The notes under the pieces are model-generated. The model saw only the letters and a program-made list of their open reading frames with translations. It was not told where the DNA came from and ran no database searches. 45,320 nt of DNA from Lentisphaeria bacterium (GTDB taxonomy: Bacteria > Verrucomicrobiota > Lentisphaeria > Victivallales > Victivallaceae), in NCBI GenBank assembly GCA_017450705.1, contig JAFSTC010000041.1, positions 1-45,320 on the forward strand, in the 5' to 3' direction. Positions 5,387 through 24,301 of this stretch are shown in pieces (within the stretch, counting starts at the first letter, position 1; the number at the start of each line of letters is the position of its first letter). The position numbers and the translations under genes are program-made.

Positions 5387-7060
5387 ATGAGCACGCGGAA
5401 ACTGACGATCCTGGCCGTTTTCGCCGCCGCGCTGGTATATTTCGGCGGGCTGTGGCAGCGGCCTCTGCTGTCTCCGGATGAGATCCGTTATGCCGAGATC
5501 CCCCGCGAGATGCTCGTCACCGGCAACTTCGCCGTCCCCACGCTCAACGGTCTCGCCTACTACGAAAAACCGGTCCTCGGCTACTGGCTGACGGCGGCCG
5601 GCATGACGCTCTTCGGGCAGAACCGCTTCGCCGTGCGTTTCCCTTCGGCGCTTTTTTCGCTGCTGACCGCGGGGACGGTCTTCCTCCTCGGCGTCAGGGG
5701 CCGCGACCGCCGGACGGGAACGCTGGCCTGCGCGCTCTTTCTCTCTTCGGGGCTGGTCTTTGCCATCGGCACTTCCGCCGTTCTGGATCCCTTCTTCGCC
5801 TTTTTCGTGACGGCGGGGACCGCCGCGGGGTACTTTTATCACACGGAGAAGATCCGGCGCAAAAGGCTCCTCTGGCTCTTCCTCGCCGGACTTTTCATCG
5901 GATGCGGCATCATGGTCAAGGGTTTGCTTGCGCCGCTCCTGGCCGGTTCGGCCGTCGCCGCCTTTTTTCTGCTGAAAAAGCGATACCGGCAGCTGGCCGC
6001 GGCCGTTCTGCCCGTGCTGGCGGGCATGGCCGTTTCAGCGCTGCCGGGCGCGCTTTTCATGCATCACTCCGCCCCGGACTTCTGGAAGGAATTCATCCTC
6101 ATCGAGCATATCCGCCGGGGCCTCTCCGGAGCGGGGGCGGCGGATGACCGCGCCCAGCCCCCGTGGTTTTATCTCCCGGTCCTGATCGGCGGCGCGATGC
6201 CCGTTCTGGCGCTGCTCCCTTCCGGGATCGCCGCGGTGTGGAAAAAGAAAAAGGCATTTTTCCTCGGAGACGACCTCAACTGCTTCTGTTTCGTGACCGC
6301 GCTGCTGTGGTTTCTCTTCTTCTCCGTCGCCAGGGCGAAACTGGCCACCTATATCCTGCCGTTGTTCCCCTTTCTGGCGGTCCTCGCCGCCTCCGCGCTT
6401 CTCGAAGCGGAAAAGGAGGGGTTTCTTTACATCGCCGACCGCGTTCTCACGGGGTTCTGCACCTTTCTGGCGCCCGCGGCGATCCTCTTTCTCGTCTGGC
6501 ATCTCCTGCCCTCCGTCCCGGGAAAGTGGAAGCTCTATCCCGCCGTCGCGGCCGTGCCGCCCTTCATGACGGTCGTGCTGATGCTCCTCTGGTACAGCAT
6601 GGCGGCCCGCGAAAAAGACGTCTATCCTCAGCGGAAGCTCCTCTATTTCTGCATCGGGACGGCCGTGGCCATGCTGTCGGTCAATCAGCTGATCCCCTTC
6701 AAATTTCTCCGCGACGCCGATCCCGAAAGCTTCATCCGGCGGGCGGTGATGCCCCGTCTCAGGCCCGGCGCGGTCATCCTGGCCGACGGCGGCATGGCCG
6801 CCGCCGCCGCGTGGACGCTGAAACATCCCGTCATCGTCTACATCAAGCCGGGGGAATTCAAAAACGGCCTCGACCGGGCGGGAATCCCCCCCGTGACGCC
6901 GGGAGACCTTGAAAAAATGATCCCAGAAACGAAAAAAAGCGGCCGGCAGATCGTCGTCCTCACCCGCTCGAAAAACCGGCTGAAGGAGATGCCGCCCAAA
7001 AAGACCGTGGTCCGTTCCGGACGCATGGCGGCGGCCTTTTTCGGAGGGACGTCCAGATGA
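5387..7060 (+). CDS. ArnT/PMT-like membrane glycosyltransferase (GT39/GT83 type), copy 1
   Basis: A 557-aa protein with about a dozen hydrophobic segments. The first periplasmic loop carries SPDEIRYAEIPREML and YYEKPVLGYWL, the signature of ArnT-like enzymes that transfer a sugar from a polyprenyl-phosphate carrier to lipid A or a surface glycan; the Asp-Glu pair is the expected metal/catalytic site. A soluble tail of about 100 residues follows the last membrane segment. It overlaps the next gene, a paralogue with the same loop motifs, by ATGA. Whether the product adds aminoarabinose, mannose or something else is not visible. No ArnA/ArnB-type sugar genes lie nearby. Confidence 0.8.
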   Translation: MSTRKLTILAVFAAALVYFGGLWQRPLLSPDEIRYAEIPREMLVTGNFAVPTLNGLAYYEKPVLGYWLTAAGMTLFGQNRFAVRFPSALFSLLTAGTVFLLGVRGRDRRTGTLACALFLSSGLVFAIGTSAVLDPFFAFFVTAGTAAGYFYHTEKIRRKRLLWLFLAGLFIGCGIMVKGLLAPLLAGSAVAAFFLLKKRYRQLAAAVLPVLAGMAVSALPGALFMHHSAPDFWKEFILIEHIRRGLSGAGAADDRAQPPWFYLPVLIGGAMPVLALLPSGIAAVWKKKKAFFLGDDLNCFCFVTALLWFLFFSVARAKLATYILPLFPFLAVLAASALLEAEKEGFLYIADRVLTGFCTFLAPAAILFLVWHLLPSVPGKWKLYPAVAAVPPFMTVVLMLLWYSMAAREKDVYPQRKLLYFCIGTAVAMLSVNQLIPFKFLRDADPESFIRRAVMPRLRPGAVILADGGMAAAAAWTLKHPVIVYIKPGEFKNGLDRAGIPPVTPGDLEKMIPETKKSGRQIVVLTRSKNRLKEMPPKKTVVRSGRMAAAFFGGTSR

Positions 7061-8760
7061 AGAACGCCCTGCTGTTCCTGCTGTTTTTCTCGGCGGTCTA
7101 TCTCCTGCCCCTCGGCCAGCGTCCTCTGGTGACCCCCGACGAATTCAGGTACGCCGAGATCCCCCGCGAGATGCTCTGCTCGGGCAACTTCGCCGTTCCG
7201 CGTCTGATGGGCCGCCCCTATTTCGAAAAACCGGTGCTGGGGTACTGGCTGACCGCGGCGAGTTTCTTCCTCTTCGGTGAAAGTCCCTTCTCCGCGCGTC
7301 TCTCCGCGGCCCTCTCCACCGGGATCACCGCGCTTTTCATCATGCTCTGGGTCTTTTCCGCGCTGTACGACAAAAGACAGGCCCTGCTCGCGGGAGCCAT
7401 GTACCTGGGATGCGCCGTCGTCTGGGTGCTGGGCACCTTCGTCGTGCTGGATCCGCCCATGACCGCCTTCAGCACGGGAGCCATGCTCTGCGCCTTCGGG
7501 TATCTCCAGCGGGAGCGGTCGAGGGTCTCGAAGATCCTTCTGCTCATGCTCTGCGGCGTCTGCTGCGGTCTGGGGTTCATGACCAAGGGTCTCCCCGCGC
7601 TGGTCGCGCCGGCGCTGGGCGCTCTGGGCTTCATCCTCCTCGAAAGGCGCTGGAAAGAGCTGTTCCTCATGCCGTGGATCCCGGCGCTGTTCGCCCTGCT
7701 CGCGGTCCTGCCCTGGGGGATCGCCGTCCACCGGGCCGACCCGGACTTCTGGCGTTACTTCATCGAAGTCGAGCATCTGCAGCGCTTCTCGCAGGAGACT
7801 GACGGCCAGCATCCCCAGCCCTGGTGGTACCTGCTGCCCTTCTTTTTCGGCGGTCTCTTCCCCGCCGCGCTCCTGCTGACCGCGGGGATCGGCGGCATCC
7901 GTATGATCCTGCGCAAGATGGCCGCCGTTCCCCTTTACCGTTTCGCCCTGTGTGCCGCGGTCCTGCCGCTCGTCCTGTTTTCCTGTTCCCGGGGGAAGCT
8001 GCCGACCTACATTTTGCCCTGCATCCCGCCGGCCGCGGTTCTGATGGCCGGATTCGTCGCCCTTTCCCTCAGGGAGAACCGGAAGGGGGAGAAATGCGTC
8101 TGCCTGCTCTTCGACATCGCAGGCTGTATCGCGGCCGCGGGGGGCGTTCTCGCCGTCCTGACCGGGTACGCGGTGAGATTCCGTTTCGTTCCGGCGCCGC
8201 AGGAACTTTCGGCCGTCTCGTCGGCCGTCACCGCCGCCGGAGCCTGTTTCGCGGCCGCGGGGGCACTGCTGCTGCTCTCACGCAAAAAGGCGGTCCGTCC
8301 GAGACTGTGGGTCTTCTCGCTTCTCTTTGCACTTCCCCTCGCCGTCGTGCCCTTTTTCATCGGCGGGCAGGTGAATGAAAGCAAAATGCCCTCCGCCATT
8401 TTCGGCAAGATCAGGCGGTCTTTCGGGATCGTTCCGGAGAAGACCGTCATCGTGACCATCCCGTCGCTCATGCACGCCGCCGCCTGGGAGTTCGGCGTCA
8501 CGGACATCCGTCTGCTGGGCGCCGTCGGCGAAATGGAATACGCCGACCTGCGGGCGAAAAAGGAAAAACGCTCCCCCCTGACCATGAACACGGCGGACTT
8601 CAGAAACTTCATCCGCCGAAAGGACCGGAAAGACGTGCTCTATCTCCACTGGAGCGACCGTTCCTCGATCGAAGTTCCCGGCGTCGCGCCCGCCTTGACC
8701 TTTTCGGACTCCGACATCGCCGCAAAATACTATCCCGCAGGCGCAGGAGGACAAAAATGA
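7057..8760 (+). CDS. ArnT/PMT-like membrane glycosyltransferase, copy 2
   Basis: A 567-aa multi-pass membrane protein with the same N-terminal catalytic loop as its upstream neighbour (TPDEFRYAEIPREML, then YFEKPVLGYWL). It is clearly a tandem duplicate that has diverged, chiefly in the C-terminal half. The start overlaps the previous stop as ATGA, and the stop overlaps the next start the same way, so the three genes form a tight operon behind the promoter at 5321-5349. Two such enzymes side by side suggest two different acceptor sites or two donor sugars, which is inference. Confidence 0.8.
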   Translation: MKNALLFLLFFSAVYLLPLGQRPLVTPDEFRYAEIPREMLCSGNFAVPRLMGRPYFEKPVLGYWLTAASFFLFGESPFSARLSAALSTGITALFIMLWVFSALYDKRQALLAGAMYLGCAVVWVLGTFVVLDPPMTAFSTGAMLCAFGYLQRERSRVSKILLLMLCGVCCGLGFMTKGLPALVAPALGALGFILLERRWKELFLMPWIPALFALLAVLPWGIAVHRADPDFWRYFIEVEHLQRFSQETDGQHPQPWWYLLPFFFGGLFPAALLLTAGIGGIRMILRKMAAVPLYRFALCAAVLPLVLFSCSRGKLPTYILPCIPPAAVLMAGFVALSLRENRKGEKCVCLLFDIAGCIAAAGGVLAVLTGYAVRFRFVPAPQELSAVSSAVTAAGACFAAAGALLLLSRKKAVRPRLWVFSLLFALPLAVVPFFIGGQVNESKMPSAIFGKIRRSFGIVPEKTVIVTIPSLMHAAAWEFGVTDIRLLGAVGEMEYADLRAKKEKRSPLTMNTADFRNFIRRKDRKDVLYLHWSDRSSIEVPGVAPALTFSDSDIAAKYYPAGAGGQK

Positions 8761-11302: not shown

Positions 11303-11344
11303 ACGGCTTGCCGGAAGGGGCAAGACAATCGTGTCGTACCTCCA

Positions 11345-11661
11345 CGATTTTCTTTCCCCCTTCACCCCCTATCTTCTCTGTTACTCGCGCAAGATGGACC
11401 TGGCAAAAACAGCGACGCCGGATTGGTGATGCATTGCAAAAATGGCGGGGCAGGCGGTTTCGAGGGGCGTACCCTTCTGCGGTACACCCCGAGGAAATGG
11501 CTGTTTCGCTCTTTTGCAAGGCGCACCAAGACAAGTCGGGGATTTTGACTGGGCCATCAATACCCCGTATGGTGACAGCGAAACCGCTGCGGTTTTATTT
11601 ACCGCTGGGCCGGGTGACAGCGGTCTCGTCGACGACTTCTTCGCCCCGCGGGCAGCGGTAA
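11345..11661. repeat. 317-bp interspersed repeat, copy 1
   Basis: It is nearly identical to 23986-24301. The first 262 bp differ at only about five positions, then about 30 bp are diverged, and the end (CCGCGGGCAGCGGTAA) is again identical. It holds palindromic element 2. A plus-strand frame starting at ATG 11442 is shared with the other copy. In this copy a 1-nt difference near 11646 shifts the frame away from the TAA that ends the other copy. No transposase or RNA-gene signature is recognisable. Confidence 0.8.
11434..11519. repeat. TTGCAAAA-ended palindromic element 2 (inside the 317-bp repeat)
   Basis: TTGCAAAA at 11434-11441 is inverted as TTTTGCAA at 11512-11519. The arms align along their whole length with small internal loops. 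The tip is GGGGCGTACC pairing with GGTACACCCC around CTTCTGC. Confidence 0.7.
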
Positions 11662-13035: not shown

Positions 13036-13170
13036 ATGGCTTACAAGAAACCCCAGATGGTCGCGAAATCCTCCGCGAAGAAGTCCTACGTCGCCGGTTG
13101 CCCGGCAAATTCAGGTGCAACCTGCTGTAGTGCTTACAACACTTCTTGTGAAATTGCTCCCCGCGACTGA
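13036..13170 (+). CDS. Cys-rich RiPP precursor peptide 1 (44 aa)
   Basis: ATG 13036 follows a GGAG ribosome site. The N-terminal part reads MAYKKPQMVAKSSAKK then SYVAGCP. It is Lys-rich, has no classical double-glycine site, and is almost identical to that of the second peptide 32 bp downstream. The putative core after GCP contains further Cys as a CC pair and a single C near the end, giving four Cys in all, plus many Ser, Thr, Asn and Gly residues. Small Cys-rich peptides placed directly before PqqD-domain radical SAM/SPASM enzymes are the known layout of sactipeptide- and ranthipeptide-type RiPPs, where thioether bridges are made. It resembles what I remember of the FibroRumin-type Cys-rich peptides, but I cannot verify that name. 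The frame is open far upstream (to 12724), but that part is noncoding leader. Confidence 0.8.
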   Translation: MAYKKPQMVAKSSAKKSYVAGCPANSGATCCSAYNTSCEIAPRD

Positions 13171-13201
13171 CCACAAATAACTATTGCAGAAGGAATTTAT
13201 T

Positions 13202-13339
13202 ATGAACTACAAGAAACCCAAGATGGTCGCGAAATCTGTCGCGAAGAAATCCTATGTCGCCGGATGTCCGGAGAAGACAATTGGCAACGGAACGGCCTGT
13301 TGGAACGAGCCGAGTTGCGAAATCAGACGTGTAAAGTAA
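13202..13339 (+). CDS. Cys-rich RiPP precursor peptide 2 (45 aa)
   Basis: ATG 13202 is preceded by GAAGGAA. The leader MNYKKPKMVAKSVAKKSYV and the AGCP junction match peptide 1 at 20 of the first 23 residues. The core differs: it has three Cys (in AGCP, ACW and SCE) with a Trp after the second and a basic end, EIRRVK. The conserved spacing C-(15)-C near the end (TSCEI in peptide 1, PSCEI in peptide 2) suggests that the first and last Cys have the same role, while the middle one or two vary. Leader conservation with core divergence is what is expected when one enzyme set processes both. The peptide is followed 17 bp later by a strong hairpin. Confidence 0.8.
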   Translation: MNYKKPKMVAKSVAKKSYVAGCPEKTIGNGTACWNEPSCEIRRVK

Positions 13340-13356
13340 TTCCGCACAGTCATACT

Positions 13357-13396
13357 GACTTCTCCCGGCATCCCTGAACAGATGCAGGGAGAAGTC
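13357..13396 (+). terminator. Hairpin after the precursors, likely partial terminator
   Basis: GACTTCTCCC (13357-13366) pairs with GGGAGAAGTC (13387-13396), with an inner GCATC/GATGC extension. It is followed by TTCCCCACCTCATTTTTATC, which has only a distant T-run. Placed between precursors and enzymes, it would let precursors be made in excess over maturases. Confidence 0.6.
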
Positions 13397-13444
13397 TTCC
13401 CCACCTCATTTTTATCTTAAATTTTGCTGAAGAGACAACAATCA

Positions 13445-14443
13445 ATGAATATTGCCATCCAGTTTTCCCATTCCGGAAAGGAAGAAATTCCTGACAGACT
13501 GGCGCTTCATTCAAGACATTTCATCCCCCAGCCGAATGCTCCTTCCGGTTATTATCAACGGAGTTGGACAACTGCCCCGAATCATGGCAGAAAATTCCTG
13601 CAGGATGAGGGGAAATATGTTATTCCGGCAAGCGGGAAAGAGACTGTCCGAAAGGATCTTGCACTCTGGTGCGAAGCCGAATGGAATACCATGGCAAGGC
13701 GATTGAGTCAGCTCCCCAACGTTCCCGCAACCAGTATATATCCGGGTTGGCTTCATTGTTTTTGTCCCGTTCCGCCCGTCTTTACCGGTCCGTATGGACA
13801 GAATACGGATCCGTATGTTTTCGGGCCGCATTTCATTTACAGCAATTGCCGGCAGAATAATCGGGTATTGAGGCGCATCCGTTTTCAGCCGGGCGACATG
13901 ATCCTTTTCGGATCCATGAAGAGTAACCTCCAATCGCCCCGTTTCATGCTGGATACCGTTTTTATTGTGGGGGATATCCCTGCTTATAAAATTGGCAAAG
14001 GGGAAAAACTGTCCGATATCAGACGTGGATGCGGTTCCCTGATTACGCGCAATTTTGAAGAGACAGTGCTCAAACCGATTCTAAACGGACAACCTTATCC
14101 CGGAGCCGTATGTTTGCCGACAAACTTTACACTGTATTTCGGAGCATCTTTTCAACGGCCGTGGAAGGCAATCTATTCTTTTGTTCCCATAAAAGTTCCC
14201 GGGCTGACGAAATCAGCCAGCGGCAATGGCGACATCGGCTATGAAAGACTGACCTTTACGGCTCAAGATATGCGCTATCTGCCATTGCTTTCCCAAGTGA
14301 TCGATTTGAATTTGAACCCGCGGCGGGGAATTCATCCTTGCCCGGTCAATCCATCATTTGATACGGTCAGGATATGGCATGAACTGGTCAATTTTGCTAT
14401 TTCACGAGGATATGTTCTCGGAACGTATTTCAAGGAACCGTGA
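13445..14443 (+). CDS. Unrecognised 332-aa protein in the RiPP operon
   Basis: I do not recognise this gene with confidence. It is soluble: no signal peptide or membrane segment. Blocks that look conserved are HFIYSNCRQN, LRRIRFQPGDMILFGS, RFMLDTVFIVGD and TLYFGASFQRPW. The aromatic-rich YSNC block followed by a GDMILFG turn and a DTVF strand is reminiscent of PUA/ASCH-like or nucleotide-modification-associated (Nmad-type) domains, an idea based on memory of the fold patterns only. ATG 13445 (after GAAGAGA) is preferred; a TTG at 13424 would add seven residues. Its base composition is clearly more AT-rich than the flanks. The stop is 1 bp from the next start, so it is co-transcribed with the maturases and may bind the peptide, the cofactor or RNA. 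Confidence 0.5.
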   Translation: MNIAIQFSHSGKEEIPDRLALHSRHFIPQPNAPSGYYQRSWTTAPNHGRKFLQDEGKYVIPASGKETVRKDLALWCEAEWNTMARRLSQLPNVPATSIYPGWLHCFCPVPPVFTGPYGQNTDPYVFGPHFIYSNCRQNNRVLRRIRFQPGDMILFGSMKSNLQSPRFMLDTVFIVGDIPAYKIGKGEKLSDIRRGCGSLITRNFEETVLKPILNGQPYPGAVCLPTNFTLYFGASFQRPWKAIYSFVPIKVPGLTKSASGNGDIGYERLTFTAQDMRYLPLLSQVIDLNLNPRRGIHPCPVNPSFDTVRIWHELVNFAISRGYVLGTYFKEP

Positions 14444-14444
14444 G

Positions 14445-15839
14445 ATGCTCATTCAACTTTCCCGCCACGCTTTTGTCCGGCATTTTGGCAATATGTCGGA
14501 AGTCATCAATCAGCGCAATGATGCCAAATTCTGGCTCCAGGATGCCGAACCGTTTTTGCGGTTCATCGACCGCACGCCTCGGAAGGAGGAGGAGATCATC
14601 CGGGACATCGCGGGCGTCTACGGGTGTCCGCCGGAGGATGTGGCGGAAGACTTCCGGGCATTTGCAGAAAATATATCCGGAGCGCTTCTGCGGGGAGAAA
14701 CCGAAGCGGAATTGTCCACGCAGGAACCGGAGTTCCGTTATTATACGAGACAGGAAGCCGAGGCGGAAACAGCGAGATCCGTTTCCCTTTCAGTTGAACG
14801 ATCACAGGAAACCGATAATTTCAGTGACAGCGGCATCAATGATTTTCTGATCGCCCACAGACAGATCTCATCCCTGCATATCGATCTGACGGATGGTTGT
14901 ACCGAACGGTGCGTCCACTGCTATGTGCCGGAATACGGAACAAAAACCCTGTCTTTCGATGCCGTCTGCAAAGTTCTGAAGGAATACCGGGACATGGGAG
15001 GTCTCGAAGTGGAATTATCCGGCGGGGAACCGATGTGTCATCCGCAATTCCGCGAGATTTTGAGATACGCCCGGAACTGCGACCTGATGATCACGGTATT
15101 GTCCAATTTGACAGTGCTGGACGAAAAAACCGTCAAAACATTGTCTGATGTAAGAATCAAATATCTGCAAACCAGCGTTTACAGTATGATCCCGGAAGTG
15201 CACGATGCGATCACGCAGCGCCCGGGGTCTTTCGCCGAAACCATGCGCGGGATCGCTTTGATGCGGGAGTACGATGTCCCTATGAAGATCAATACCCCCG
15301 TTTTAAAAGAAAATTTTGGATCGTGGCGTACCGTCGAGGAGTTCTGCGCGGACCAGAATTATAAATTCAGCAGCAATGCGAGTCTGCTTGCCAGGGTCAA
15401 CCATGACTGCGGAAATCTCGACCACGGCTTGAGCGCCGCGCAGATGCACTCGTATCTCTCATCCTGCCAGAGCAGCAATCCGTGGGGGCCCGGAACATTC
15501 AATAAACAGCCGGATGACCCGATGTGCGAAGTATGCACCATTAAACTGCGTCTGGATGCGGCGGGGAATTATTATCCCTGCGTTGCGGGACGCGGTCTCG
15601 TGCTGGGGAATTGCCATAAAGTGACCATACGGGAGGCATGGAACAGTGAACTGGCCGAAAAACTCCGCGCGTTGAAACAGCGGGATTTCCCAGAGTGTTT
15701 CCAATGCAAAAGCAGATGTTTCTGTCTGGCCTGTCCCGCCGCCAATTTCAATGAAACGGGCGACCTTTACCGGCATCGCCCCGAATATTGCATGGAGCCG
15801 AAAATCAAATATCAACTCTGCAAGGAAAAATCATGCTGA
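14445..15839 (+). CDS. Radical SAM/SPASM peptide maturase 1, with PqqD/RRE-like N-terminus
   Basis: A 464-aa enzyme. Residues 1-95 form a PqqD-like domain (starts MLIQLSRHAFVRHFG), the module that binds RiPP leader peptides. The radical SAM core has CTERCVHC, with the CX3CX2C cluster ligands Cys152, Cys156 and Cys159, followed by VELSGGEP. A C-terminal SPASM domain (from about residue 361) has CEVCTIKLRLDAAGNYYPC and later CFQCKSRCFCLACPAANFN plus a final EYC, enough to bind two auxiliary Fe-S clusters. Enzymes of this build make thioether or C-C bonds on Cys-rich precursors. Start 14445 has AAGGA upstream; the frame is open further up but that overlaps the previous gene. It is clearly paralogous to the next gene, with more AT-rich codons. 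The stop overlaps the next start by 7 bp. Confidence 0.88.
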   Translation: MLIQLSRHAFVRHFGNMSEVINQRNDAKFWLQDAEPFLRFIDRTPRKEEEIIRDIAGVYGCPPEDVAEDFRAFAENISGALLRGETEAELSTQEPEFRYYTRQEAEAETARSVSLSVERSQETDNFSDSGINDFLIAHRQISSLHIDLTDGCTERCVHCYVPEYGTKTLSFDAVCKVLKEYRDMGGLEVELSGGEPMCHPQFREILRYARNCDLMITVLSNLTVLDEKTVKTLSDVRIKYLQTSVYSMIPEVHDAITQRPGSFAETMRGIALMREYDVPMKINTPVLKENFGSWRTVEEFCADQNYKFSSNASLLARVNHDCGNLDHGLSAAQMHSYLSSCQSSNPWGPGTFNKQPDDPMCEVCTIKLRLDAAGNYYPCVAGRGLVLGNCHKVTIREAWNSELAEKLRALKQRDFPECFQCKSRCFCLACPAANFNETGDLYRHRPEYCMEPKIKYQLCKEKSC

Positions 15840-17293
15840 TCCGTCTTTCCAAAAACACGTTCGTCCGCAATTACGGGAACTTCACCTACGTTTTCCACAA
15901 ACTCAACGCCTACGACGAGATGTTCGACGGGGCGGAGGTGTTCATGCGGTGGATCACCCGGGAACCGCGGGAGAAGTCGGAGATCCTGAAAAACATCTGC
16001 GGCGTCTACACGGAGACCGATCCGGCTGAGATCGCGGCGGATTTCGAGGAGTTCATCGCCCCCATGATCGCGGCGGGGGCGGTCCTGACGGGAAACACGC
16101 CCGCCGAACTGGACGCGCAGGAGGTGAGTTTCCGCTACGACATGCCGGATCCGAAGACCGAACGGGACACGACGCCGGTCACGAAGGAAGAAGCGGAGAA
16201 GATGCCTCAACTCGTGCTCAAGAAATACTTCGAGGAGCATCCGACGCTCTTCGACATCCAGCTGGACATCACGCAGGCTTGCACGGAGCGGTGCATCCAC
16301 TGCTACGTGCCGGAGTACAATCCGCTCTTTTTGCCGTACGAAAAGATCCGCGAGGTGATTGACGAGTTCCGGGAGATGGGCGGACTGCACGTCGGGCTCT
16401 CCGGCGGGGAGTGCATGCTGCATCCGGATTTCGAAAAGATCGTGCGGTACATCCGGAGCAAGGACTGCACTTGCGGCATCCTCTCCAATCTCACGCTGTG
16501 CGACGACGGCAAGGTCGCTCTGCTGAAGGAGATGGACTGCGGAGTCCAGGTTTCGCTTTACAGCATGGATCCGGAGATCCACGAGAGCATCACCAAAAGG
16601 AAAGGGTCGTGGCTGGAAACGAAGACAGCCATCGAAAAACTGTACAAAGCCAATGTGCCTGTCACGATCAGCTGTCCCACCATGCGGAAAAATTTCGAGG
16701 GCTATCTGGAGGTCATGAAATACGCGGAATCCATGCACATGTTCGCGCAGACCGATTTCATCATGATGGCGAAGGCGGATCACGATTCCAGCAACCTGGT
16801 CAACCGTCTGACCCTGCCGCAGACCAAATGTCTGCTGGAAGACATCATTCTGCGCGACGTGCCCATGATGAAGGAGTATTTCAACCCGGACGTGAAGGAC
16901 GAACTGCAGACGCCGGAAGAACGCGCCGAACAGCACATGTGCGGCGCCGGGACCGACAAGATGTGTCTCAATGCCGACGGGAATTATTACGCCTGTTCCG
17001 GATTTCAGGATTTCCCGCTGGGAAACTGTTTCAAACAGACCCTGCGGGACGTGTGGGAGAATTCTCCGCAGATCAAGTATCTGCGCGGACTGCGGGGCAA
17101 GGACATCCCGAAGTGCATCCACTGCAAAGACCGGAATTACTGTTCCATGTGTCTCGTGCGCAATTTCAACGAGACCGGGGACATGCTGAAAGTCGCGGAG
17201 CATTTCTGCAAGGTGGCCCGTCTCAATCACGAGATCGTGGACGAGCTCCATGCAAAACTGGAAAAAGAGTACCGGGCGGAACACGGGAAATGA
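15833..17293 (+). CDS. Radical SAM/SPASM peptide maturase 2, with PqqD/RRE-like N-terminus
   Basis: A 486-aa paralogue of the previous gene with the same order of domains: PqqD-like residues 1-95 (MLIRLSKNTFVRNYG), radical SAM cluster CTERCIHC (Cys150, Cys154, Cys157), HVGLSGGECM, and a SPASM domain from Cys370 (CGAGTDKMC, NADGNYYAC, CIHCKDRNYCSMC, EHFC). Codon use is GC-rich like the rest of the chromosome, unlike maturase 1, so the pair may have different histories. ATG 15833 follows AAGGAA. The stop overlaps the next gene as ATGA. With two precursors of different Cys pattern, the enzymes may each serve one peptide or act in sequence on both. Confidence 0.88.
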   Translation: MLIRLSKNTFVRNYGNFTYVFHKLNAYDEMFDGAEVFMRWITREPREKSEILKNICGVYTETDPAEIAADFEEFIAPMIAAGAVLTGNTPAELDAQEVSFRYDMPDPKTERDTTPVTKEEAEKMPQLVLKKYFEEHPTLFDIQLDITQACTERCIHCYVPEYNPLFLPYEKIREVIDEFREMGGLHVGLSGGECMLHPDFEKIVRYIRSKDCTCGILSNLTLCDDGKVALLKEMDCGVQVSLYSMDPEIHESITKRKGSWLETKTAIEKLYKANVPVTISCPTMRKNFEGYLEVMKYAESMHMFAQTDFIMMAKADHDSSNLVNRLTLPQTKCLLEDIILRDVPMMKEYFNPDVKDELQTPEERAEQHMCGAGTDKMCLNADGNYYACSGFQDFPLGNCFKQTLRDVWENSPQIKYLRGLRGKDIPKCIHCKDRNYCSMCLVRNFNETGDMLKVAEHFCKVARLNHEIVDELHAKLEKEYRAEHGK

Positions 17294-18036
17294 TCTGCGA
17301 CGCCCATGTGCATGTCGGCTATTTTCCCCGCAAGGGGCGGGAGGAACCCTTTTACTACTCGCCGCGGCGGATATTGGGGATCCTGAACCGGGCGGGCGTG
17401 GATGAATTCATTTTCTCTTCAACCAACGCGGTCTGGGATTTCGAAGGCGACGCCATGCACCGCGAGGCCCGGGAAATGCGCCGTCTCGCCGGGAAACGCG
17501 CCCACGCCTTTTTCTGGGTCACGGACGAATATCTGAAACGCGATCCCGATCTGGCGAAGCTGCCGTTTTTTTACGAAGGATTCAAGCTCCACGGCGGGGA
17601 GACCCCGTGGCTGGAGCATCCCCGGCTCCTTTCCCGGGTCCTCGCCGTTGCCCGGGAACGCAAATTCCCCGTCCAGATCCATACGGGGGAAAAGGACGAC
17701 AAGTCCGCCAATCCGATTTCGGGCTATCTGCCGTACTGCCGGAAATACCCGGAAGTCAGATTCGATCTCGCCCACGGCAAGCCCGCGGGGGACGTCCCCC
17801 GGGCGGTCAACGACAACGGCAACGTCTACGTGGACTGCGCCTACTGTTCCGCCGACGTCGTAAAAGGATGGCTGGACGCCGGAGCGCGGGAGGACCGGAT
17901 CCTCTTCGGCAGCGACATCCCCGTCCAGCAGAGACTTGCCGATCTGCCGCTGACGGCTTATCTGCGGAAGACCCTGCGGGGCTTTTCCTCCTCGAAAATA
18001 CGCTTCGAAAACTTCAGGGATTTTTTGAAAAAATGA
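17290..18036 (+). CDS. Amidohydrolase-2 family metal-dependent hydrolase in the RiPP operon
   Basis: A 248-aa TIM-barrel hydrolase. Metal ligands appear in order: HxH in CDAHVHVGYF (residues 6 and 8), His in VQIHTGE, His in DLAHGKP, and Asp in LFGSDIP. It is short for the family, nearer to TatD-like size. It overlaps maturase 2 upstream and the glycosyltransferase downstream, both by ATGA, so it belongs to the operon. In this context it could hydrolyse an amide of the modified peptide, including leader removal, since no dedicated protease is present; that is inference. An unrelated housekeeping role is possible. The in-frame open stretch upstream of 17290 is noncoding shadow of maturase 2. 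Confidence 0.72.
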   Translation: MICDAHVHVGYFPRKGREEPFYYSPRRILGILNRAGVDEFIFSSTNAVWDFEGDAMHREAREMRRLAGKRAHAFFWVTDEYLKRDPDLAKLPFFYEGFKLHGGETPWLEHPRLLSRVLAVARERKFPVQIHTGEKDDKSANPISGYLPYCRKYPEVRFDLAHGKPAGDVPRAVNDNGNVYVDCAYCSADVVKGWLDAGAREDRILFGSDIPVQQRLADLPLTAYLRKTLRGFSSSKIRFENFRDFLKK

Positions 18037-20027
18037 AGGAGATCGCCTACATTTCGCTTTGCCCCCTGGGCGACGTTGTCTGCTGTATGAACCAGCTGGA
18101 GCATCTGAAAAAGCTCTACGCCCCCTGCCGGATCACGGTTTTCGCCATCCCGCTCATCGCCGAACTGATGAAAAACTCCGCATGGGTGGACGAGGTCGTC
18201 GTGCTGAAGGGCAATGTCCGTTATGACCTCGAGCTGAGTGATTTCGTCCCCCCGGAAACGGAATTCGACGTTGTTTTCAACATGAGTTATTATCCGGTCT
18301 ACGTCGAATTGCAGAAAAGATTGAAATGCAAGGTCCGGTACGGCTCCGAGTGTCAGCCGCTGATCACGAAGGAACTGTGCGAAGCCAATTTCGACAAGTG
18401 GGTCAGTCAGGAATACTGGGACAACGTGACGCTCAAAAAATACCGGACGGTCTGCGAACAGATGGCGGAGCCGATCCGGCTGGTCGATCCGGAGTTCGAT
18501 TTCGTTTATCCGACGCTTACGCCGGAGACCTATCGTCTGGAGCCCTATCCCGGGGAACTGCCGGAAAAATTCGTGCTGTTTTTGCCCGGGACCAGCTGGA
18601 TCGGGAAATACTGGCCGGTCACGAAGTATCTCGCGGCCGCAAAGACTTTGAAAGCCGCGGGCGTGGATGCGGTCTTCGCCATCGGCCCGCAGGACCGGGT
18701 TCTGGTGCCGGAACTGGAAAAGAGCGGCTTCCCCGTGCTGGACACGCTGCCCTTTTCCCAGCTGGCGTATGTGGCGGATCGGGCGGAGCTTGTCATCGGC
18801 AACGATTCGGGGCCCATGCATTTCGCCGCCGCGTTCCACCGCAAAACGATCCACATCATCGCCAGCGGCTCCGCGTTCAACTGGTATCCCTACGAAGAAC
18901 CGGTCCACTCGCTTGTCATGCCGGACTGCGCAAGCGAAGAAAAATGCAACTCATGTCGGAAAACCTGCATCGGGAAGATCTCCGTGGAGAAGGTGGTGCG
19001 GAAACTCTTCGAAAAACTGGCTCTCCCGCAGCCGCGGATCCGGGAGGTCGCCTTCATGGTGCAGGACCGCATCGGCGATTCCCTCGTCAACATCGACGCC
19101 CTCGAGGCCGCGGCGAAAATCTGCGCGCCGTGCAATGTCACCGTTTTCGCGACGGAGACCATGGCGCCCTTCTTTCGGGCATACGCCTTTGCCGACCGGG
19201 TGATCGAGTTCCGCGGGGCGGAGACGGTTTTGCCGGACCGGGAATATGACGCCGTATTCAATTACCGCTACGACACGGCGTCGCTGGAGCTCCTGCGCCG
19301 GATGAAATACCGGACGGCTTACGGTTACGAACAGATCGACTTCCCGGAGTCCGTCTGCAAAGAGGTCTTCACGAAATATCTGCCGCTCTCGATGTGGGAC
19401 GACGTGAAACTGCGGCGCTACACCAGCGTCACGGAACAGGGCGCGTCTCTGATCCGGCTGGTCGATCCGGCGTATCACTGCAACGCGGTCTCCCTGGCGG
19501 AAAACACGCTGTGCACAGATTTCGCGGAACTGCCGGAAGGTCTGCTCGACCGCGACACGGTGCTGATCGTCCCCGGAGCCAGCAGCAGATACAAAGACTG
19601 GGGACTCGAAAATTACCTCCGTCTGGCCGCCGACCTGAAAGAAAAAGGGAAAAAACCGGTTTTCATTCTCGGCCCGCAGGAGAAAGATCTTTACGGGAAA
19701 CCGGCGGAAGGAGCCGGGTTCGAGACAGCGCTCGACCTTCCGCTGACTTCGATCGCCGCCCTGGCGTTCGCGTGCCGGCATCGCGGTTTCACCGTCGGCA
19801 ACGACACCGGCGTGATGCATCTCGTCCGCGCCTGCGGGTGCCCCAGCGTGACGGTCTGTTTCGAGGACACCAGTCTGACCTGGGCGCCCTACGCGGCGGA
19901 CATCCACAAAGTCGTTCACGCGGACTGCGCCGACTACGTTTCCTGCCGCAGGTGTGAAACGCGCGATTGCCGCAAAGACATGACCTATGAGAGAGTTTGG
20001 CATGAAGTCCGGCGTTTTCTCGCATGA
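18033..20027 (+). CDS. Double GT9 (heptosyltransferase-like) glycosyltransferase
   Basis: A 664-aa protein made of two fused glycosyltransferase-9 units. Unit 1 (about 1-330) starts IAYISLCPLGDVVCCMNQLE and has LPGTSWIGKYWPVTKY and IGNDSGPMH (from residue 255). Unit 2 (about 335-664) starts VAFMVQDRIGDSLVNIDALE and has VPGASSRYKDWGLENYL and VGNDTGVMH (from 588). Each unit ends with a Cys cluster, CNSCRKTC and CRRCETRDC. GT9 enzymes usually transfer ADP-heptose to LPS or, in some bacteria, to proteins; single-unit proteins of about 350 aa are the norm. Lying between RiPP maturases and an exporter with overlapping ends, it could glycosylate the peptide. LPS modification is the main alternative. 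Confidence 0.8.
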   Translation: MKEIAYISLCPLGDVVCCMNQLEHLKKLYAPCRITVFAIPLIAELMKNSAWVDEVVVLKGNVRYDLELSDFVPPETEFDVVFNMSYYPVYVELQKRLKCKVRYGSECQPLITKELCEANFDKWVSQEYWDNVTLKKYRTVCEQMAEPIRLVDPEFDFVYPTLTPETYRLEPYPGELPEKFVLFLPGTSWIGKYWPVTKYLAAAKTLKAAGVDAVFAIGPQDRVLVPELEKSGFPVLDTLPFSQLAYVADRAELVIGNDSGPMHFAAAFHRKTIHIIASGSAFNWYPYEEPVHSLVMPDCASEEKCNSCRKTCIGKISVEKVVRKLFEKLALPQPRIREVAFMVQDRIGDSLVNIDALEAAAKICAPCNVTVFATETMAPFFRAYAFADRVIEFRGAETVLPDREYDAVFNYRYDTASLELLRRMKYRTAYGYEQIDFPESVCKEVFTKYLPLSMWDDVKLRRYTSVTEQGASLIRLVDPAYHCNAVSLAENTLCTDFAELPEGLLDRDTVLIVPGASSRYKDWGLENYLRLAADLKEKGKKPVFILGPQEKDLYGKPAEGAGFETALDLPLTSIAALAFACRHRGFTVGNDTGVMHLVRACGCPSVTVCFEDTSLTWAPYAADIHKVVHADCADYVSCRRCETRDCRKDMTYERVWHEVRRFLA

Positions 20028-21825
20028 TCTTCTGGTCGCGAAACAGCTCTTCTTTCTGGCGAAGATCTTTTTCAGGGACCTGAAGAAACTGCTGGCAGTC
20101 AGTCTGGTGCTGGGATTTTTCGCCGAAACGCTGGCCATGCTCATGCCTCAGCTGACCGGGAACCTGGCCGGTTCGCTCGCCGACTGGACGGCCTTCCGGA
20201 GCGCCGCGTTTCTGTTTCTGGGGGTGGGGATCGTCCAGTTCCTGTTCGCTGTGAGCAACGACGTTTTCGACCGTCTGCTGAAAGACCGTCTGGAGCGGGA
20301 TTCCTGGTGCGCCGTGCACAGACAGCTCCTGACGATGGATCCCGATTACTATCAGACCCACGCCGCGGGGGAGATGCTGCTGAACATCAACTCCGGAAGC
20401 GGGATCGCCTATGAACTGCTGGAGCTGATCTGCTTCCCCGTCTTTTACGGAAGCGGCATGATCGCGGGGCTGATCCTGCTGACCCGTTCGCTGAGCGGGA
20501 TCCATCTCCCGGGCTGGCTGGTGGCGGCGCTGGTCGCGGCCATGGCGGCGCAGCCGTTCCAGACCTGGTATTTCGGGAAGCTGATCGCAAAGGCCTGCGT
20601 GAAGGTCCGCGAGAGCGGGACGCAGATCAACGAGGAGATCCTGAACGATCTCCACGCGCCGGCGGAGCTGCGGCTCCTGAACGCCGTGAAACGGCGGCTG
20701 GAGAAAATGTTCGCCGTCCAGCATCTGCTGGCCCTGCGCATGGATAAAGCCATGCTGCTGCACATCGCCAGCCGCTACTCCATGAGTCTGCTGATCCTGC
20801 TGTTCCAGTTCGCCATCGTCATTTCCGTTCTGATGAATTACGATTTGAAGGGAACGGTCGTCCGCGACCTGATTTCCTCCATTCTGCTGATCCCGCTGAT
20901 GTTCAATCATCTGAACAAGCTGCAGCAGATGTACAACGGGGTCAAGGACCGGGAACCCTACGTCGCGGCGGTCTACGAATTGTTCCGGCAGAAAAAGCGC
21001 CTTCCCGCCGGGACCCTCGACGGCCCCGGAGATCCCGCGGGCGGGATCGAGCTTGCCGGGGTCTCCTTCTCTTATCCGGAGGGGCCGCCGGTCCTGAAGG
21101 GGGTCGGCCTGTCGCTGCGGCCCGGCGGGACTTACGGACTGCTCTCCGCTTCCGGCGAGGGAAAATCGACCGTTCTCAAACTGCTCGGCCGACTCTATCT
21201 GCCCCAAGCCGGGGAGATCACCTGGGGCGGGACCGACATTTTCCGCATCCGCGAGGAGATCTACCGCGAAAGATGCGTCCTCTGTTCGCAGTTCCCGCTG
21301 TTCATAAAGGGGACGGTCCGCGACAATTTCAGGCTCCGGTCCCCGGAGATCTCCGACGAAGAGATCATCCGTCTGTGCAAGGAGACGGGATTCGCCGCCG
21401 TCATGGACACGCCCGAAAAAGCGATCCCCGATCTGGAACTCGCCCTCGGCGCGGACAACCTCTCCGGCGGGCAGAGAAGACTGCTCGCCCTCTCCGGGTG
21501 TCTCTCCGTCCATCCCCGGATCCTTCTGCTGGACGAACCCTCCTCGGGCGTGGACGGCCCCACGATCCGGGATCATCTCGTCCCCCTGCTCCAACGCCTG
21601 AAAGAACGAAATCTGCTCATCGTCGCGGCGGATCACAACGTGAACTTTCTCGCCGCCGTGTCGGACGAGATCTTCGTTCTGAAAGACGGCGCAGTCGCCG
21701 AACACGGCAAAACCTGTGCCCTCCGCCGCCGTCCGGACGGCCTGTTCCGCGCGTTCGCGGCAAAATGGAACGATCCGCAAGCCGAAGGCGGCCGTTTCCC
21801 GCTTTCCCGCCCCGGGAAAACTTGA
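19987..21825 (+). CDS. ABC transporter, fused membrane and ATPase domains, likely peptide exporter
   Basis: A 612-aa half-transporter. The N-terminal 330 residues hold about five or six membrane segments of the type-1 exporter fold. The C-terminal ATPase has a Walker A at 387-395 reading SASGEGKST, where the usual first Gly is Ser; a signature LSGGQRR at about 493; Walker B ILLLDEPSSG; and the switch His in VAADHN. There is no C39 peptidase domain, so it would not cleave the leader. It overlaps the GT9 gene; ATG 20002, preceded by GAGAG, is an alternative start five codons in. As the last gene of the operon it probably exports the finished peptide, or serves as self-immunity. Confidence 0.82.
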   Translation: MREFGMKSGVFSHDLLVAKQLFFLAKIFFRDLKKLLAVSLVLGFFAETLAMLMPQLTGNLAGSLADWTAFRSAAFLFLGVGIVQFLFAVSNDVFDRLLKDRLERDSWCAVHRQLLTMDPDYYQTHAAGEMLLNINSGSGIAYELLELICFPVFYGSGMIAGLILLTRSLSGIHLPGWLVAALVAAMAAQPFQTWYFGKLIAKACVKVRESGTQINEEILNDLHAPAELRLLNAVKRRLEKMFAVQHLLALRMDKAMLLHIASRYSMSLLILLFQFAIVISVLMNYDLKGTVVRDLISSILLIPLMFNHLNKLQQMYNGVKDREPYVAAVYELFRQKKRLPAGTLDGPGDPAGGIELAGVSFSYPEGPPVLKGVGLSLRPGGTYGLLSASGEGKSTVLKLLGRLYLPQAGEITWGGTDIFRIREEIYRERCVLCSQFPLFIKGTVRDNFRLRSPEISDEEIIRLCKETGFAAVMDTPEKAIPDLELALGADNLSGGQRRLLALSGCLSVHPRILLLDEPSSGVDGPTIRDHLVPLLQRLKERNLLIVAADHNVNFLAAVSDEIFVLKDGAVAEHGKTCALRRRPDGLFRAFAAKWNDPQAEGGRFPLSRPGKT

Positions 21826-21876: not shown

Positions 21877-22467
21877 ATGCGCTATCCCACGACACGGAAA
21901 AGTCTGCTGGAACGGGTGCAGAGCGGCGACGAAGTCTCGTGGAACGAGTTTTACTGCCGCTACGCCCCCGTCGTCCGCGCCGTGGCCGCGCTCTACCGGC
22001 TCCACCCGGACGAGTGCGACGACGTCGTCCAGATGGTGATGACCAAATTCTTCGGAGCCCGGGAGCGCTACACCTACCGCGAAGGAAAAGTCAAGTTCCG
22101 CACGTACTTTGCGACGGTGATCCGCAGCTGTGCCGTCGATTACATCCGCGCCAACGCTTCGCCCGCGGGGACCCGTCTCCCGGAGCCCCCCGGCGAAGAC
22201 CCCTTCGGCGACCGCTTCCTCGAGGAGTGGCGCAAGGCGGTCCTCGACGAGGCCCTCGACGAACTCCGGCTCCGGGTCGACGGCAAAACCTATCAGGCCT
22301 TCGAGTGGTACGCGCTCCAGGGCCGTCCCGTCGCCGACGTCACGGCGGTCCTGTCGCTGACCCGCAATCAGGTCTATCTGGCCAAGTCCCGCTGCACCGC
22401 GATCCTGCGCGAGATCGTTTCCCGGCTCAACCGCGCCGACGGAGAACTCCATCTTGACTTGCCGTGA
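21877..22467 (+). CDS. ECF-type RNA polymerase sigma factor
   Basis: A 196-aa sigma-70 family protein. The region 2 helix reads NEFYCRYAPVVRAVAALYRL with DECDDVVQMVMTKFF as the conserved sigma2 tail. A region 4 helix-turn-helix follows at about 145-180 (GRPVADVTAVLSLTRNQVYLAKSR). The linker is long and acidic. The gene starts at ATG 21877, 27 bp behind a sigma-70-type promoter, so it may not be autoregulated. It overlaps a Ser/Thr kinase gene by 14 bp. In planctomycete-type genomes such sigma factor-kinase pairs replace anti-sigma control with phosphorylation, so the neighbour is the likely regulator. The target promoters are unknown. Confidence 0.82.
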   Translation: MRYPTTRKSLLERVQSGDEVSWNEFYCRYAPVVRAVAALYRLHPDECDDVVQMVMTKFFGARERYTYREGKVKFRTYFATVIRSCAVDYIRANASPAGTRLPEPPGEDPFGDRFLEEWRKAVLDEALDELRLRVDGKTYQAFEWYALQGRPVADVTAVLSLTRNQVYLAKSRCTAILREIVSRLNRADGELHLDLP

Positions 22468-23800
22468 GGGAGACACTTTCGAAGCGTACACCCTTCTCCG
22501 CAAATGCGGACAGGGCGCCTGCGGCACGGTCTTCCTCGCGGAGAACCGCATCACCCGCCGCCGGGTCGCGCTCAAAATGATCCCTCTCGGCGGACGCACC
22601 TGCGAACGGGAGATCCGGGGACTCACCGCCTATCAGGCGGTCTGCCGCCGCACCAATCTGCTCCAAATCTACCATGTCGGGACCGCGGAAGACGTCCTCT
22701 TTTACACCATGGACGCCGCCGACGACCGGGGCCAAGGGGAAAACTATATCCCCGACACCCTCGCCAACCGCCTCGCTTCCGACGGCTCTCTGCCGCCGGA
22801 GACCGTGCGGCAGATGGCTTCGGATCTGGCGGAGGACCTCGCGCGCCTTCACCGCGCAAATCTGCTGCACCGCGACATCAAGCCCGAAAACATCCTCTGG
22901 ATCGCCGGACGGGCCACGTTGGGCGACATCGGCCTGATCGCCCCGCCCGGCGGGACCGTCCCGGCCGGGACGCCCGGTTTCATGCCCCCCGAAGTGCTGG
23001 CGGGCCTGCGTCCGGCGGCCCCCGCGGACGATTTTTACGCTCTGGCAAGAAGCGTTTACTGCGCGCTGACGGGCTTGCCGCCCGAGAAGTTCCCCTCGCT
23101 CCCGGCCGAACTGGATCTGAAAAAATGCGCCGACCTGATCGCCCTCTACAACAAGTGGGATTCCGGCGCACCGGCCGTTCCGCTCACCCCGTCTCCCGCC
23201 CCGACCCGGCGTTCTTTTCTTTTGAAGATCGCGGCGGCGGTCCTGACGGCGGGGATCCTCGCCGCCCTCCTGTTCATGGCGGGGCGGCGGCCCGTTCCCC
23301 CCGGAATTTCGGCCCCCGTGAAAACACCCCGGCTGGACATCCGCGCCTACGCCCGGGCGGCCCGGGAGCTTGCCGCGCAAAATCCCCCGACCCCCGGGTT
23401 CACCGCCCTGATGCCCGCACTGGATCGGGAAGTCCGCCGCCGGCGGGACCTGCGCACGGCCGCGGAAAACGCCGCGTTTGCCCGGCCCGTTTCCCCCGAG
23501 GACCTGCGCCGCGCCGCCGCGGATCCGAAGCTTGCCCCCCACCCGGAGGCGTATTTGAGGATCCGCCGTTCGGATGAGGCCCGCGCCGAATTCGACCGGA
23601 AATTCGCGGACGACCCCGTGCACCTTTACTTTGCCGCCGCCGACCGCATCGCCTGCGAACTCGCCCGCATCGAAGCGCTGGCGGCGACGCCGGGGTTGGA
23701 TCTCGCCGACTTTTCCCGGGATCTGGAAAAACTCCGCGGCGACTTCTCCCTCCGCCGGGAAATGGAACGCCGTCTTCTCAAGGAAGGCGTCTCGCGGTAA
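22454..23800 (+). CDS. Membrane Ser/Thr protein kinase paired with the ECF sigma factor
   Basis: A 448-aa protein with a Hanks-type kinase domain in residues 10-240: glycine loop GQGACGTV, ATP-binding Lys41 in VALKMI, catalytic HRDIKPEN (His139), and DIG instead of the usual DFG. A single membrane segment lies at about 256-278 (AAAVLTAGILAALLFMAG), followed by a charged, Arg/Ala-rich extracytoplasmic domain of about 170 residues that I do not recognise and that is probably the sensor. The start is TTG 22454, preceded by GGAG, overlapping the sigma gene by 14 bp, so production is coupled. Likely role: to sense an envelope signal and phosphorylate the sigma factor. Confidence 0.82.
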   Translation: MTCREGDTFEAYTLLRKCGQGACGTVFLAENRITRRRVALKMIPLGGRTCEREIRGLTAYQAVCRRTNLLQIYHVGTAEDVLFYTMDAADDRGQGENYIPDTLANRLASDGSLPPETVRQMASDLAEDLARLHRANLLHRDIKPENILWIAGRATLGDIGLIAPPGGTVPAGTPGFMPPEVLAGLRPAAPADDFYALARSVYCALTGLPPEKFPSLPAELDLKKCADLIALYNKWDSGAPAVPLTPSPAPTRRSFLLKIAAAVLTAGILAALLFMAGRRPVPPGISAPVKTPRLDIRAYARAARELAAQNPPTPGFTALMPALDREVRRRRDLRTAAENAAFARPVSPEDLRRAAADPKLAPHPEAYLRIRRSDEARAEFDRKFADDPVHLYFAAADRIACELARIEALAATPGLDLADFSRDLEKLRGDFSLRREMERRLLKEGVSR

Positions 23801-23906: not shown

Positions 23907-23985
23907 GAAAGGGCGGTCATGTTTCTGTCCGGCGCGTCCCCGCAAGGGCAACGCGCCGTTATACGCCAGAGGGTGCTGCCCGCCG

Positions 23986-24301
23986 CGATTTTCTTTCCCC
24001 CTTCACCCCCTATCTTCTCTGTTACTCGCGCAAGATGGACCTGGCAAAAACAGCGACGCCGGATTGGTGATGCATTGCAAAAATGGCGGGACTGGCGGTT
24101 TCGAGGGGCGTACCCTTCTGCGGTACACCCCGAGGAAACGGCTGTTTCGCTCTTTTGCAAGGCGCGCCAAGACAAGTCGGGGATTTTGACTGGGCCATCA
24201 ATACCCCGTATGGTGACAGCGAAACCGCTGCGGTTTTATTTACCGCTGGGCCGTCCGACGGCAAGCCTCTCGACGATTTCGTTGCCCGCGGGCAGCGGTA
24301 A
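23986..24301. repeat. 317-bp interspersed repeat, copy 2 (316 bp)
   Basis: The second copy of the element at 11345-11661, same orientation, 12.6 kb away. The frame from ATG 24083 (72 codons) ends at the terminal TAA of the repeat. Both copies lie between a regulatory or enzyme gene and a promoter, and both are flanked by the same smaller palindromes and ACCTCAT heptamers. Confidence 0.8.
24075..24160. repeat. TTGCAAAA-ended palindromic element 4 (inside the second 317-bp repeat)
   Basis: Same 86-bp palindrome as 11434-11519, with ends TTGCAAAA (24075-24082) and TTTTGCAA (24153-24160) and the GTACC/GGTAC tip conserved. Confidence 0.7.

What the first reader, a model, noticed from the sequence alone, without database searches (positions are those of the whole stretch)
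13036..21825. RiPP operon combining two radical SAM maturases with a GT9 glycosyltransferase and an exporter
Seen: two Cys-rich peptides with shared leaders, two PqqD-SPASM radical SAM enzymes, a hydrolase, a double GT9 protein and an ABC exporter. From 14445 on, every gene overlaps the next. Known: PqqD/RRE plus SPASM enzymes form thioether or C-C links on RiPP precursors, and GT9 proteins transfer heptose-type sugars. Inference: the product is a crosslinked, possibly glycosylated peptide. I know of no established RiPP class that joins SPASM crosslinking with a GT9 enzyme, which makes this the best candidate for an undescribed system here.
Basis: partly seen in the sequence, partly recalled or inferred. 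Interest (0 to 1): 0.88.

Follow-up and report, generated by a model that had tools for sequence, protein, structure and literature searches.

The report
Double-glycosyltransferase radical-SAM peptide operon, Verrucomicrobiota
Gut-type bacteria of the Victivallales carry a conserved operon that makes a small cysteine-rich peptide and very probably crosslinks it with two radical enzymes and decorates it with a sugar, using a heptose-transferase-like enzyme not previously reported in this setting in the literature I could search.

Summary
Two 44-45-aa peptides share a leader; behind them an overlapping operon encodes two RRE-SPASM radical SAM enzymes, an ACMSD-like metal-dependent TIM-barrel enzyme, a fused double GT9 and an ABC exporter. 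I read 18 related loci in 16 Verrucomicrobiota genomes: precursor with the shared leader (Y-K-K-P-x-x-V-A-K-S...A-G-C-P) in 16, second maturase universal, tandem maturases in 13, TIM-barrel enzyme in 14, GT9 in 8, ABC in only 4. RiPP-type GT9 occurs nowhere else in 137 genomes of the order, forms a clade apart from the genome's LPS-type GT9s and keeps its motifs in both halves; the genome encodes HldD above its curated cut-off. Product, linkage, sugar and acceptor are unproven. A minimal precursor + one maturase version sits on E. coli, Salmonella and Photobacterium plasmids. No NCBIfam or Pfam model covers the precursors. Verdict: a real, uncharacterised radical-SAM RiPP family with a new tailoring combination; interpretation partly supported.

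The parts
13036..13170 (+). precursor peptide A (44 aa), Cys-rich core CPANSGATCCSAYNTSCEIAPRD
13202..13339 (+). precursor peptide B (45 aa), core CPEKTIGNGTACWNEPSCEIRRVK
13445..14443 (+). 332-aa ORF of unknown function, only in this locus; membership in the operon uncertain
14445..15839 (+). rSAM1: RRE-radical SAM-SPASM maturase, accessory member of the tandem pair
15833..17293 (+). rSAM2: RRE-radical SAM-SPASM maturase, universal member; 92% identical to orthologues in G006 and G027
17290..18036 (+). Amidohydro_2 / ACMSD-like TIM-barrel metalloenzyme (hydrolase or decarboxylase); H6, H8, K99, H101, H131, H162, D209 invariant in 14 loci
18033..20027 (+). double GT9 glycosyltransferase; two full GT9 domains, each with GD, K-x-W and GND(S/T)GxMH motifs
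19987..21825 (+). half-size ABC exporter without a C39 peptidase domain (alternative start 20002)
21877..22467 (+). ECF-type sigma factor, probable regulator or recurrent partner of the operon
22454..23800 (+). Ser/Thr-type protein kinase overlapping the sigma gene (TTG start)

Best explanation
This is an uncharacterised RiPP family. rSAM2 (and rSAM1 where present) bind the conserved leader M-x-Y-K-K-P-x-x-V-A-K-S through their N-terminal RRE and form radical-mediated, most likely thioether (sacti/ranthipeptide-like), bonds in the Cys-rich core that begins at (Y/F)-V-A-G-C-P. rSAM2 handles the universal part; rSAM1 handles the extra C-terminal C-x(5-7)-C segment with an Asn before the last Cys. 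The TIM-barrel metalloenzyme then hydrolyses or decarboxylates the peptide. In the GT9 branch, the fused double GT9 transfers one or two sugars, most likely heptose from ADP-heptose, to the peptide, with Ser/Thr or Cys of the core as acceptor. In one subclade the ABC protein exports it; elsewhere export uses another transporter. The adjacent sigma/kinase pair probably switches the operon on. Shown: gene content, order, conservation, motif integrity, a GT9 clade dedicated to these loci, a heptose epimerase in the genome. Inferred: the chemistry, the order of steps, the sugar, the acceptor, the regulation.
For: Leader profile finds a precursor next to the maturase in 16 of 18 loci and in the same 8 genomes of the order that hold rSAM2. 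Two maturases with CxxxCxxC, a full SPASM Cys set, and a predicted N-terminal beta-sheet plus three-helix domain; top fold matches SuiB, SkfB, TigE, CteB, RRE-bearing RiPP maturases aligned over nearly the full length. Sequence profile best matches SkfB, E 1e-19. rSAM1 is one clade, found only in tandem with rSAM2, and precursors of tandem loci have longer cores (23-32 vs 12-20 aa) with a C..N..C segment (13/15 vs 0/5). RiPP-type GT9 only at these loci in 137 genomes, separate from LPS-type GT9s, motifs intact in both halves. HldD 374 bits over cut-off 274.6; an HldE-like kinase 322 bits against a cut-off of 345. Metal ligands of the TIM barrel invariant.
Against: No mass or activity data. The rSAM2 model has moderate confidence (mean pLDDT 60) and PqqD is below Pfam's cut-off. 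GT9 is missing from about half of the related loci and ABC from most, so glycosylation and this exporter are not needed for the family's core function. The rSAM1/core-length correlation may be a single evolutionary event, because single-maturase loci form one clade. A GT9 could act on lipid or cell surface rather than on the peptide.
Confidence: 0.6

Rival explanations
1. The radical SAM peptide is real, but the GT9 and ABC proteins do not tailor it: they alter the producer's LPS or envelope (self-protection) and the ABC moves a lipid-linked substrate.
For: GT9 and MsbA/CydC-like transporters are envelope families by default; the operon is complete without them in at least six loci.
Against: GT9 clade found only at these loci and far from the genome's LPS GT9s; coding overlap with the maturase operon; GT9 kept without the ABC in four loci.
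Confidence: 0.2
2. The precursor is a scaffold for a small redox cofactor or metallophore, as in PQQ or mycofactocin; the conserved Y-V-A-G-C-P residues become the product and the TIM barrel and GT9 finish it.
For: Invariant A-x-C core start in all precursors; universal rSAM2 with the ACMSD-like enzyme; mycofactocin, from my own knowledge, joins a SPASM enzyme with a glycosyltransferase.
Against: Variable cores with conserved extra Cys, duplicated diverged precursors in one operon, and cores that track rSAM1 presence look like a peptide product; mycofactocin and PqqE models score far below cut-off; patchy distribution.
Confidence: 0.12
3. The cassette is chiefly a mobile island that inserts beside sigma/kinase modules, so the neighbourhood (sigma/kinase, perhaps GT9 and ABC) reflects insertion preference rather than a joint function.
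For: Sigma/kinase beside 6 of 7 loci of the genus, from different sigma lineages; a 323-bp repeat brackets the window's unit; lower GC; a minimal relative on conjugative plasmids.
Against: The repeat has 44 full or partial matches genome-wide and is not specific; I saw no transposase in the unit; GT9 position and order behind the maturases are conserved; mobility would not remove the biosynthetic reading.
Confidence: 0.08

Closest known systems
Sactipeptide / ranthipeptide systems (SkfB, CteB, AlbA, PapB)
   Same: RRE + radical SAM + SPASM enzyme beside a short Cys-rich precursor with a conserved leader; best PDB sequence and fold matches
   Different: None of the curated maturase models reaches its cut-off; two maturases in tandem, ACMSD-like enzyme, GT9; leader unlike any curated precursor
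Glycocins (sublancin type)
   Same: A glycosyltransferase in a Cys-rich RiPP operon with an ABC exporter
   Different: GT9 instead of the SunS-type family (my own knowledge); no C39 peptidase-ABC; radical SAM chemistry present
Mycofactocin
   Same: SPASM radical SAM enzyme plus a glycosyltransferase acting on a peptide-derived product (own knowledge)
   Different: Mycofactocin maturase model 75.7 bits against cut-off 265; GT9; variable Cys-rich cores
Radical-SAM + glycosyltransferase clusters of Bacteroidales (PMC10352776)
   Same: Radical SAM RiPP clusters with accessory glycosyltransferases
   Different: The passages read speak of peptide S-glycosyltransferase or unspecified glycosyltransferases; no word beginning heptos- occurs in the text
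Bottromycin amidohydrolase PurAH/BotAH
   Same: A metal-dependent amidohydrolase in a RiPP pathway (PMC10885120)
   Different: The window's enzyme is a 248-aa Amidohydro_2 protein, closest by fold to ACMSD and other decarboxylases
GT9 LPS heptosyltransferases (WaaC/WaaF type)
   Same: PF01075 and motifs
   Different: Fused double; own clade; LPS equivalog models not reached (85 bits vs 185.3)

Membership tests
radical SAM (SPASM) RiPP locus | short precursor with conserved leader next to the maturase | tested here: met
radical SAM (SPASM) RiPP locus | CxxxCxxC motif and SPASM auxiliary-cluster cysteines | tested here: met
radical SAM (SPASM) RiPP locus | RiPP recognition element | tested here: inconclusive
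   PqqD E 0.04-0.05, below cut-off; fold and secondary structure agree with RRE-bearing maturases, moderate-confidence model
sactipeptide/ranthipeptide | Cys-to-alpha/beta/gamma-carbon thioether bonds | not testable with these tools
   needs mass spectrometry
sactipeptide/ranthipeptide | match to a curated maturase model (AlbA, StsB, SkfB, PapB) over cut-off | tested here: not met
   scores between about 7% and 20% of the cut-offs
GT9 glycosyltransferase family | PF01075 over curated cut-off, donor and base motifs | tested here: met
LPS heptosyltransferase I/II/III | equivalog models TIGR02193/02195/02201 over cut-off | tested here: not met
   85 vs 185.3; 64 vs 134.6; 65.4 vs 170.2
heptose-transferring GT9 | ADP-heptose available in the host | tested here: inconclusive
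   HldD over cut-off; HldE kinase part just under its cut-off
heptose-transferring GT9 | transfer of heptose to the peptide | not testable with these tools
   needs enzyme assay and mass spectrometry
glycocin | exporter with C39 peptidase domain | tested here: not met
   no peptidase hit in the ABC protein
mycofactocin | MftC-type maturase over cut-off | tested here: not met
   75.7 vs 265 bits

The most novel reading that the evidence does not exclude
A new RiPP class: a radical-SAM crosslinked peptide that is heptosylated by a fused double GT9, made under control of a linked ECF sigma/kinase switch in Verrucomicrobiota, with a stripped-down one-maturase relative on enterobacterial conjugative plasmids.
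Probability: 0.35. Interest if true: 0.78.

Novelty: new variant of a known kind. Interest (0 to 1): 0.6.

Why it matters
Protein heptosylation is known in bacteria only for a few surface adhesins (own knowledge); a GT9 acting on a radical-SAM RiPP would be a new combination of two well-studied chemistries and a source of glycosylated crosslinked peptides from a phylum little explored for them. The loci form a natural series (one maturase; two maturases; plus GT9; plus exporter), so each enzyme's contribution can be read off by comparing products.

Tried and rejected
Defence system: PADLOC gives only generic viperin hits to the radical SAM core and generic kinase hits; rejected. Viral origin: no relative in IMG/VR, no full-length relative in phage records. 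Known RiPP precursor family: no NCBIfam or Pfam hit for the precursors tested. Structured RNA: none in the window. Sigma/kinase as a generic neighbour: tested; 7 sigma copies in the genome and only two beside RiPP loci, but 6 of 7 RiPP loci of the genus have one within 10 kb (chance about 5e-8 if placed at random); linkage not rejected. PDB sequence search for the TIM barrel: nothing meaningful. 332-aa ORF: no family found; left unexplained. Core Ser/Thr as glyco-acceptor: all GT9-positive cores have Ser/Thr within two residues before a late Cys, but so do several GT9-negative cores; left as a hypothesis. Promoter and terminator scans around the precursors gave no more hits than shuffles.

Full report
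WHAT IS THERE. The window is contig C5 of a 3.97-Mb Victivallales-type genome (nearest named relatives are Lentisphaeria UBA1791 and a Victivallaceae MAG from horse faeces). Fifty-one bases after the ABC stop an ECF sigma factor and an overlapping protein kinase follow on the same strand.

CONSERVATION. Searches with the two maturases found the tandem pair in relatives. In all I read 18 loci in 16 Verrucomicrobiota genomes. A leader model found a precursor beside the maturase in 16 of them; the two exceptions are a contig that starts 111 bases before the maturase and the most distant locus. The aligned precursors, a plasmid relative included, keep M, Y, P, A, A, C and a second C in every row. 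A precursor profile searched across 137 genomes of the order hits clearly only in the 8 genomes that also hold rSAM2. Tandem maturases: 13 loci. Amidohydro_2 enzyme: 14. GT9: 8 (double in window, G006, G010, G027, G127 and, split over two contigs, G025; single in G209 and G232). ABC: 4 (window, G006, G010, G027). At least six loci end without GT9, with between 1.4 and 8.2 kb of sequence read beyond the last cassette gene.

MATURASES. The tree splits rSAM1 (13 rows, one side of a branch) from rSAM2 plus the single maturases. Single-maturase loci have short cores (12-20 aa); tandem loci have cores of 23-32 aa with an added Cys segment containing Asn (13/15 vs 0/5, Fisher p 0.001, not corrected for phylogeny and possibly one event). 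I infer that rSAM1 acts on that added segment. The closest solved sequences are SkfB, PqqE and CteB; the predicted fold, of moderate confidence, best matches SuiB, SkfB, TigE and CteB over nearly the whole length, N-terminal RRE included. No curated maturase model reaches its cut-off.

THE 'HYDROLASE'. Fourteen relatives keep D4, H6, H8, K99, H101, H131, H162 and D209. The fold (mean pLDDT 71) is nearest to ACMSD and other decarboxylases, with a 2-pyrone-4,6-dicarboxylate hydrolase and a TatD homologue further down the list, so decarboxylation is as likely as hydrolysis. It is kept even in two loci with one maturase, which makes it part of the core chemistry.

THE GT9. The halves are 32% identical and both carry GD near the start, a K-x-W motif and GND(S/T)GxMH. 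N and C halves each form one clade, apart from two other GT9s of the genome that I take to be LPS-type: an old duplication inside the RiPP-linked lineage. Across 137 genomes of the order the profile hits only RiPP loci (the split G025 gene continues on a second contig). The genome has an HldD above its cut-off and an HldE-like kinase just under its cut-off, so ADP-heptose is probably available. This makes a dedicated sugar-transfer step the best reading; that the acceptor is the peptide and the sugar heptose is inference.

REGULATION. The sigma factor is one of seven related copies in the genome. In six of the seven loci of the genus such a sigma gene lies within 10 kb of the RiPP genes, expected by chance at about 5e-8, and these sigmas come from different lineages (6 label changes on the tree, at least 3 forced), upstream in most loci, downstream in the window. 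This is repeated linkage, not simple inheritance; a function in regulation is inferred, an insertion preference is the alternative.

SPREAD. A plasmid search found 34%-identical full-length relatives on conjugative plasmids of E. coli, Salmonella and Photobacterium, each directly preceded by a 38-aa peptide with a related leader, MSYSKPTVLAKSSTYMAQCRPNSKPSGRPCNPPGPSGR: a minimal form of the family with no GT9, ABC or TIM barrel annotated next to it. Its DNA had no match in the collection of complete E. coli genomes, so it is rare. Spread in other phyla was not tested beyond plasmids, phages and viral contigs.

NOVELTY. No paper in the held library combines radical SAM, RiPP and heptosyltransferase or GT9; searches for Verrucomicrobiota or Lentisphaerae radical-SAM RiPPs gave nothing specific. 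Radical SAM with other glycosyltransferases is reported for Bacteroidales. The library lacks most subscription journals and I could not query RadicalSAM.org or antiSMASH, so a bare catalogue entry may exist. I class it as a new variant of a known kind.

Noticed in passing
window 21877-23800; L021, L022, L023, L024, L025: ECF sigma + Ser/Thr kinase pair beside six of seven RiPP loci of the genus, from several sigma lineages.
   Followed up: yes
L071:2770-4410, L072:7792-9428, L073:7797-9437: Enterobacterial and Photobacterium conjugative plasmids carry a one-maturase relative with a 38-aa precursor bearing a related leader.
   Followed up: partly
window 11339-11661 and 23980-24301: A 323-bp repeat (94% identical) brackets the RiPP + sigma/kinase unit in direct orientation; 44 full or partial matches in the genome.
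   Followed up: partly
window 13036-15839: Precursors, orphan ORF and rSAM1 have 48-52% GC against about 65% in the flanks, rising through the operon, suggesting recent or mosaic acquisition.
   Followed up: partly
window 13445-14443: 332-aa protein without any family match, present only in this locus.
   Followed up: partly
L021:13207-13425 and 14153-14371; L022:5842-6069: Small Cys-rich proteins (C-x2-C ... YKRW) downstream of the two GT9-less loci of the genus; possibly part of that variant.
   Followed up: no
window 15833-17293 vs L023, L026: rSAM2 is 92% identical between genomes while GT9 is 76-80% and ABC 58-63%: unusually strong constraint on, or exchange of, rSAM2.
   Followed up: no
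window 5387-8760: Two adjacent, mutually similar membrane proteins (SPDE.RYAEIPREM...) that resemble ArnT/PMT-type glycosyltransferases, by eye only.
   Followed up: no
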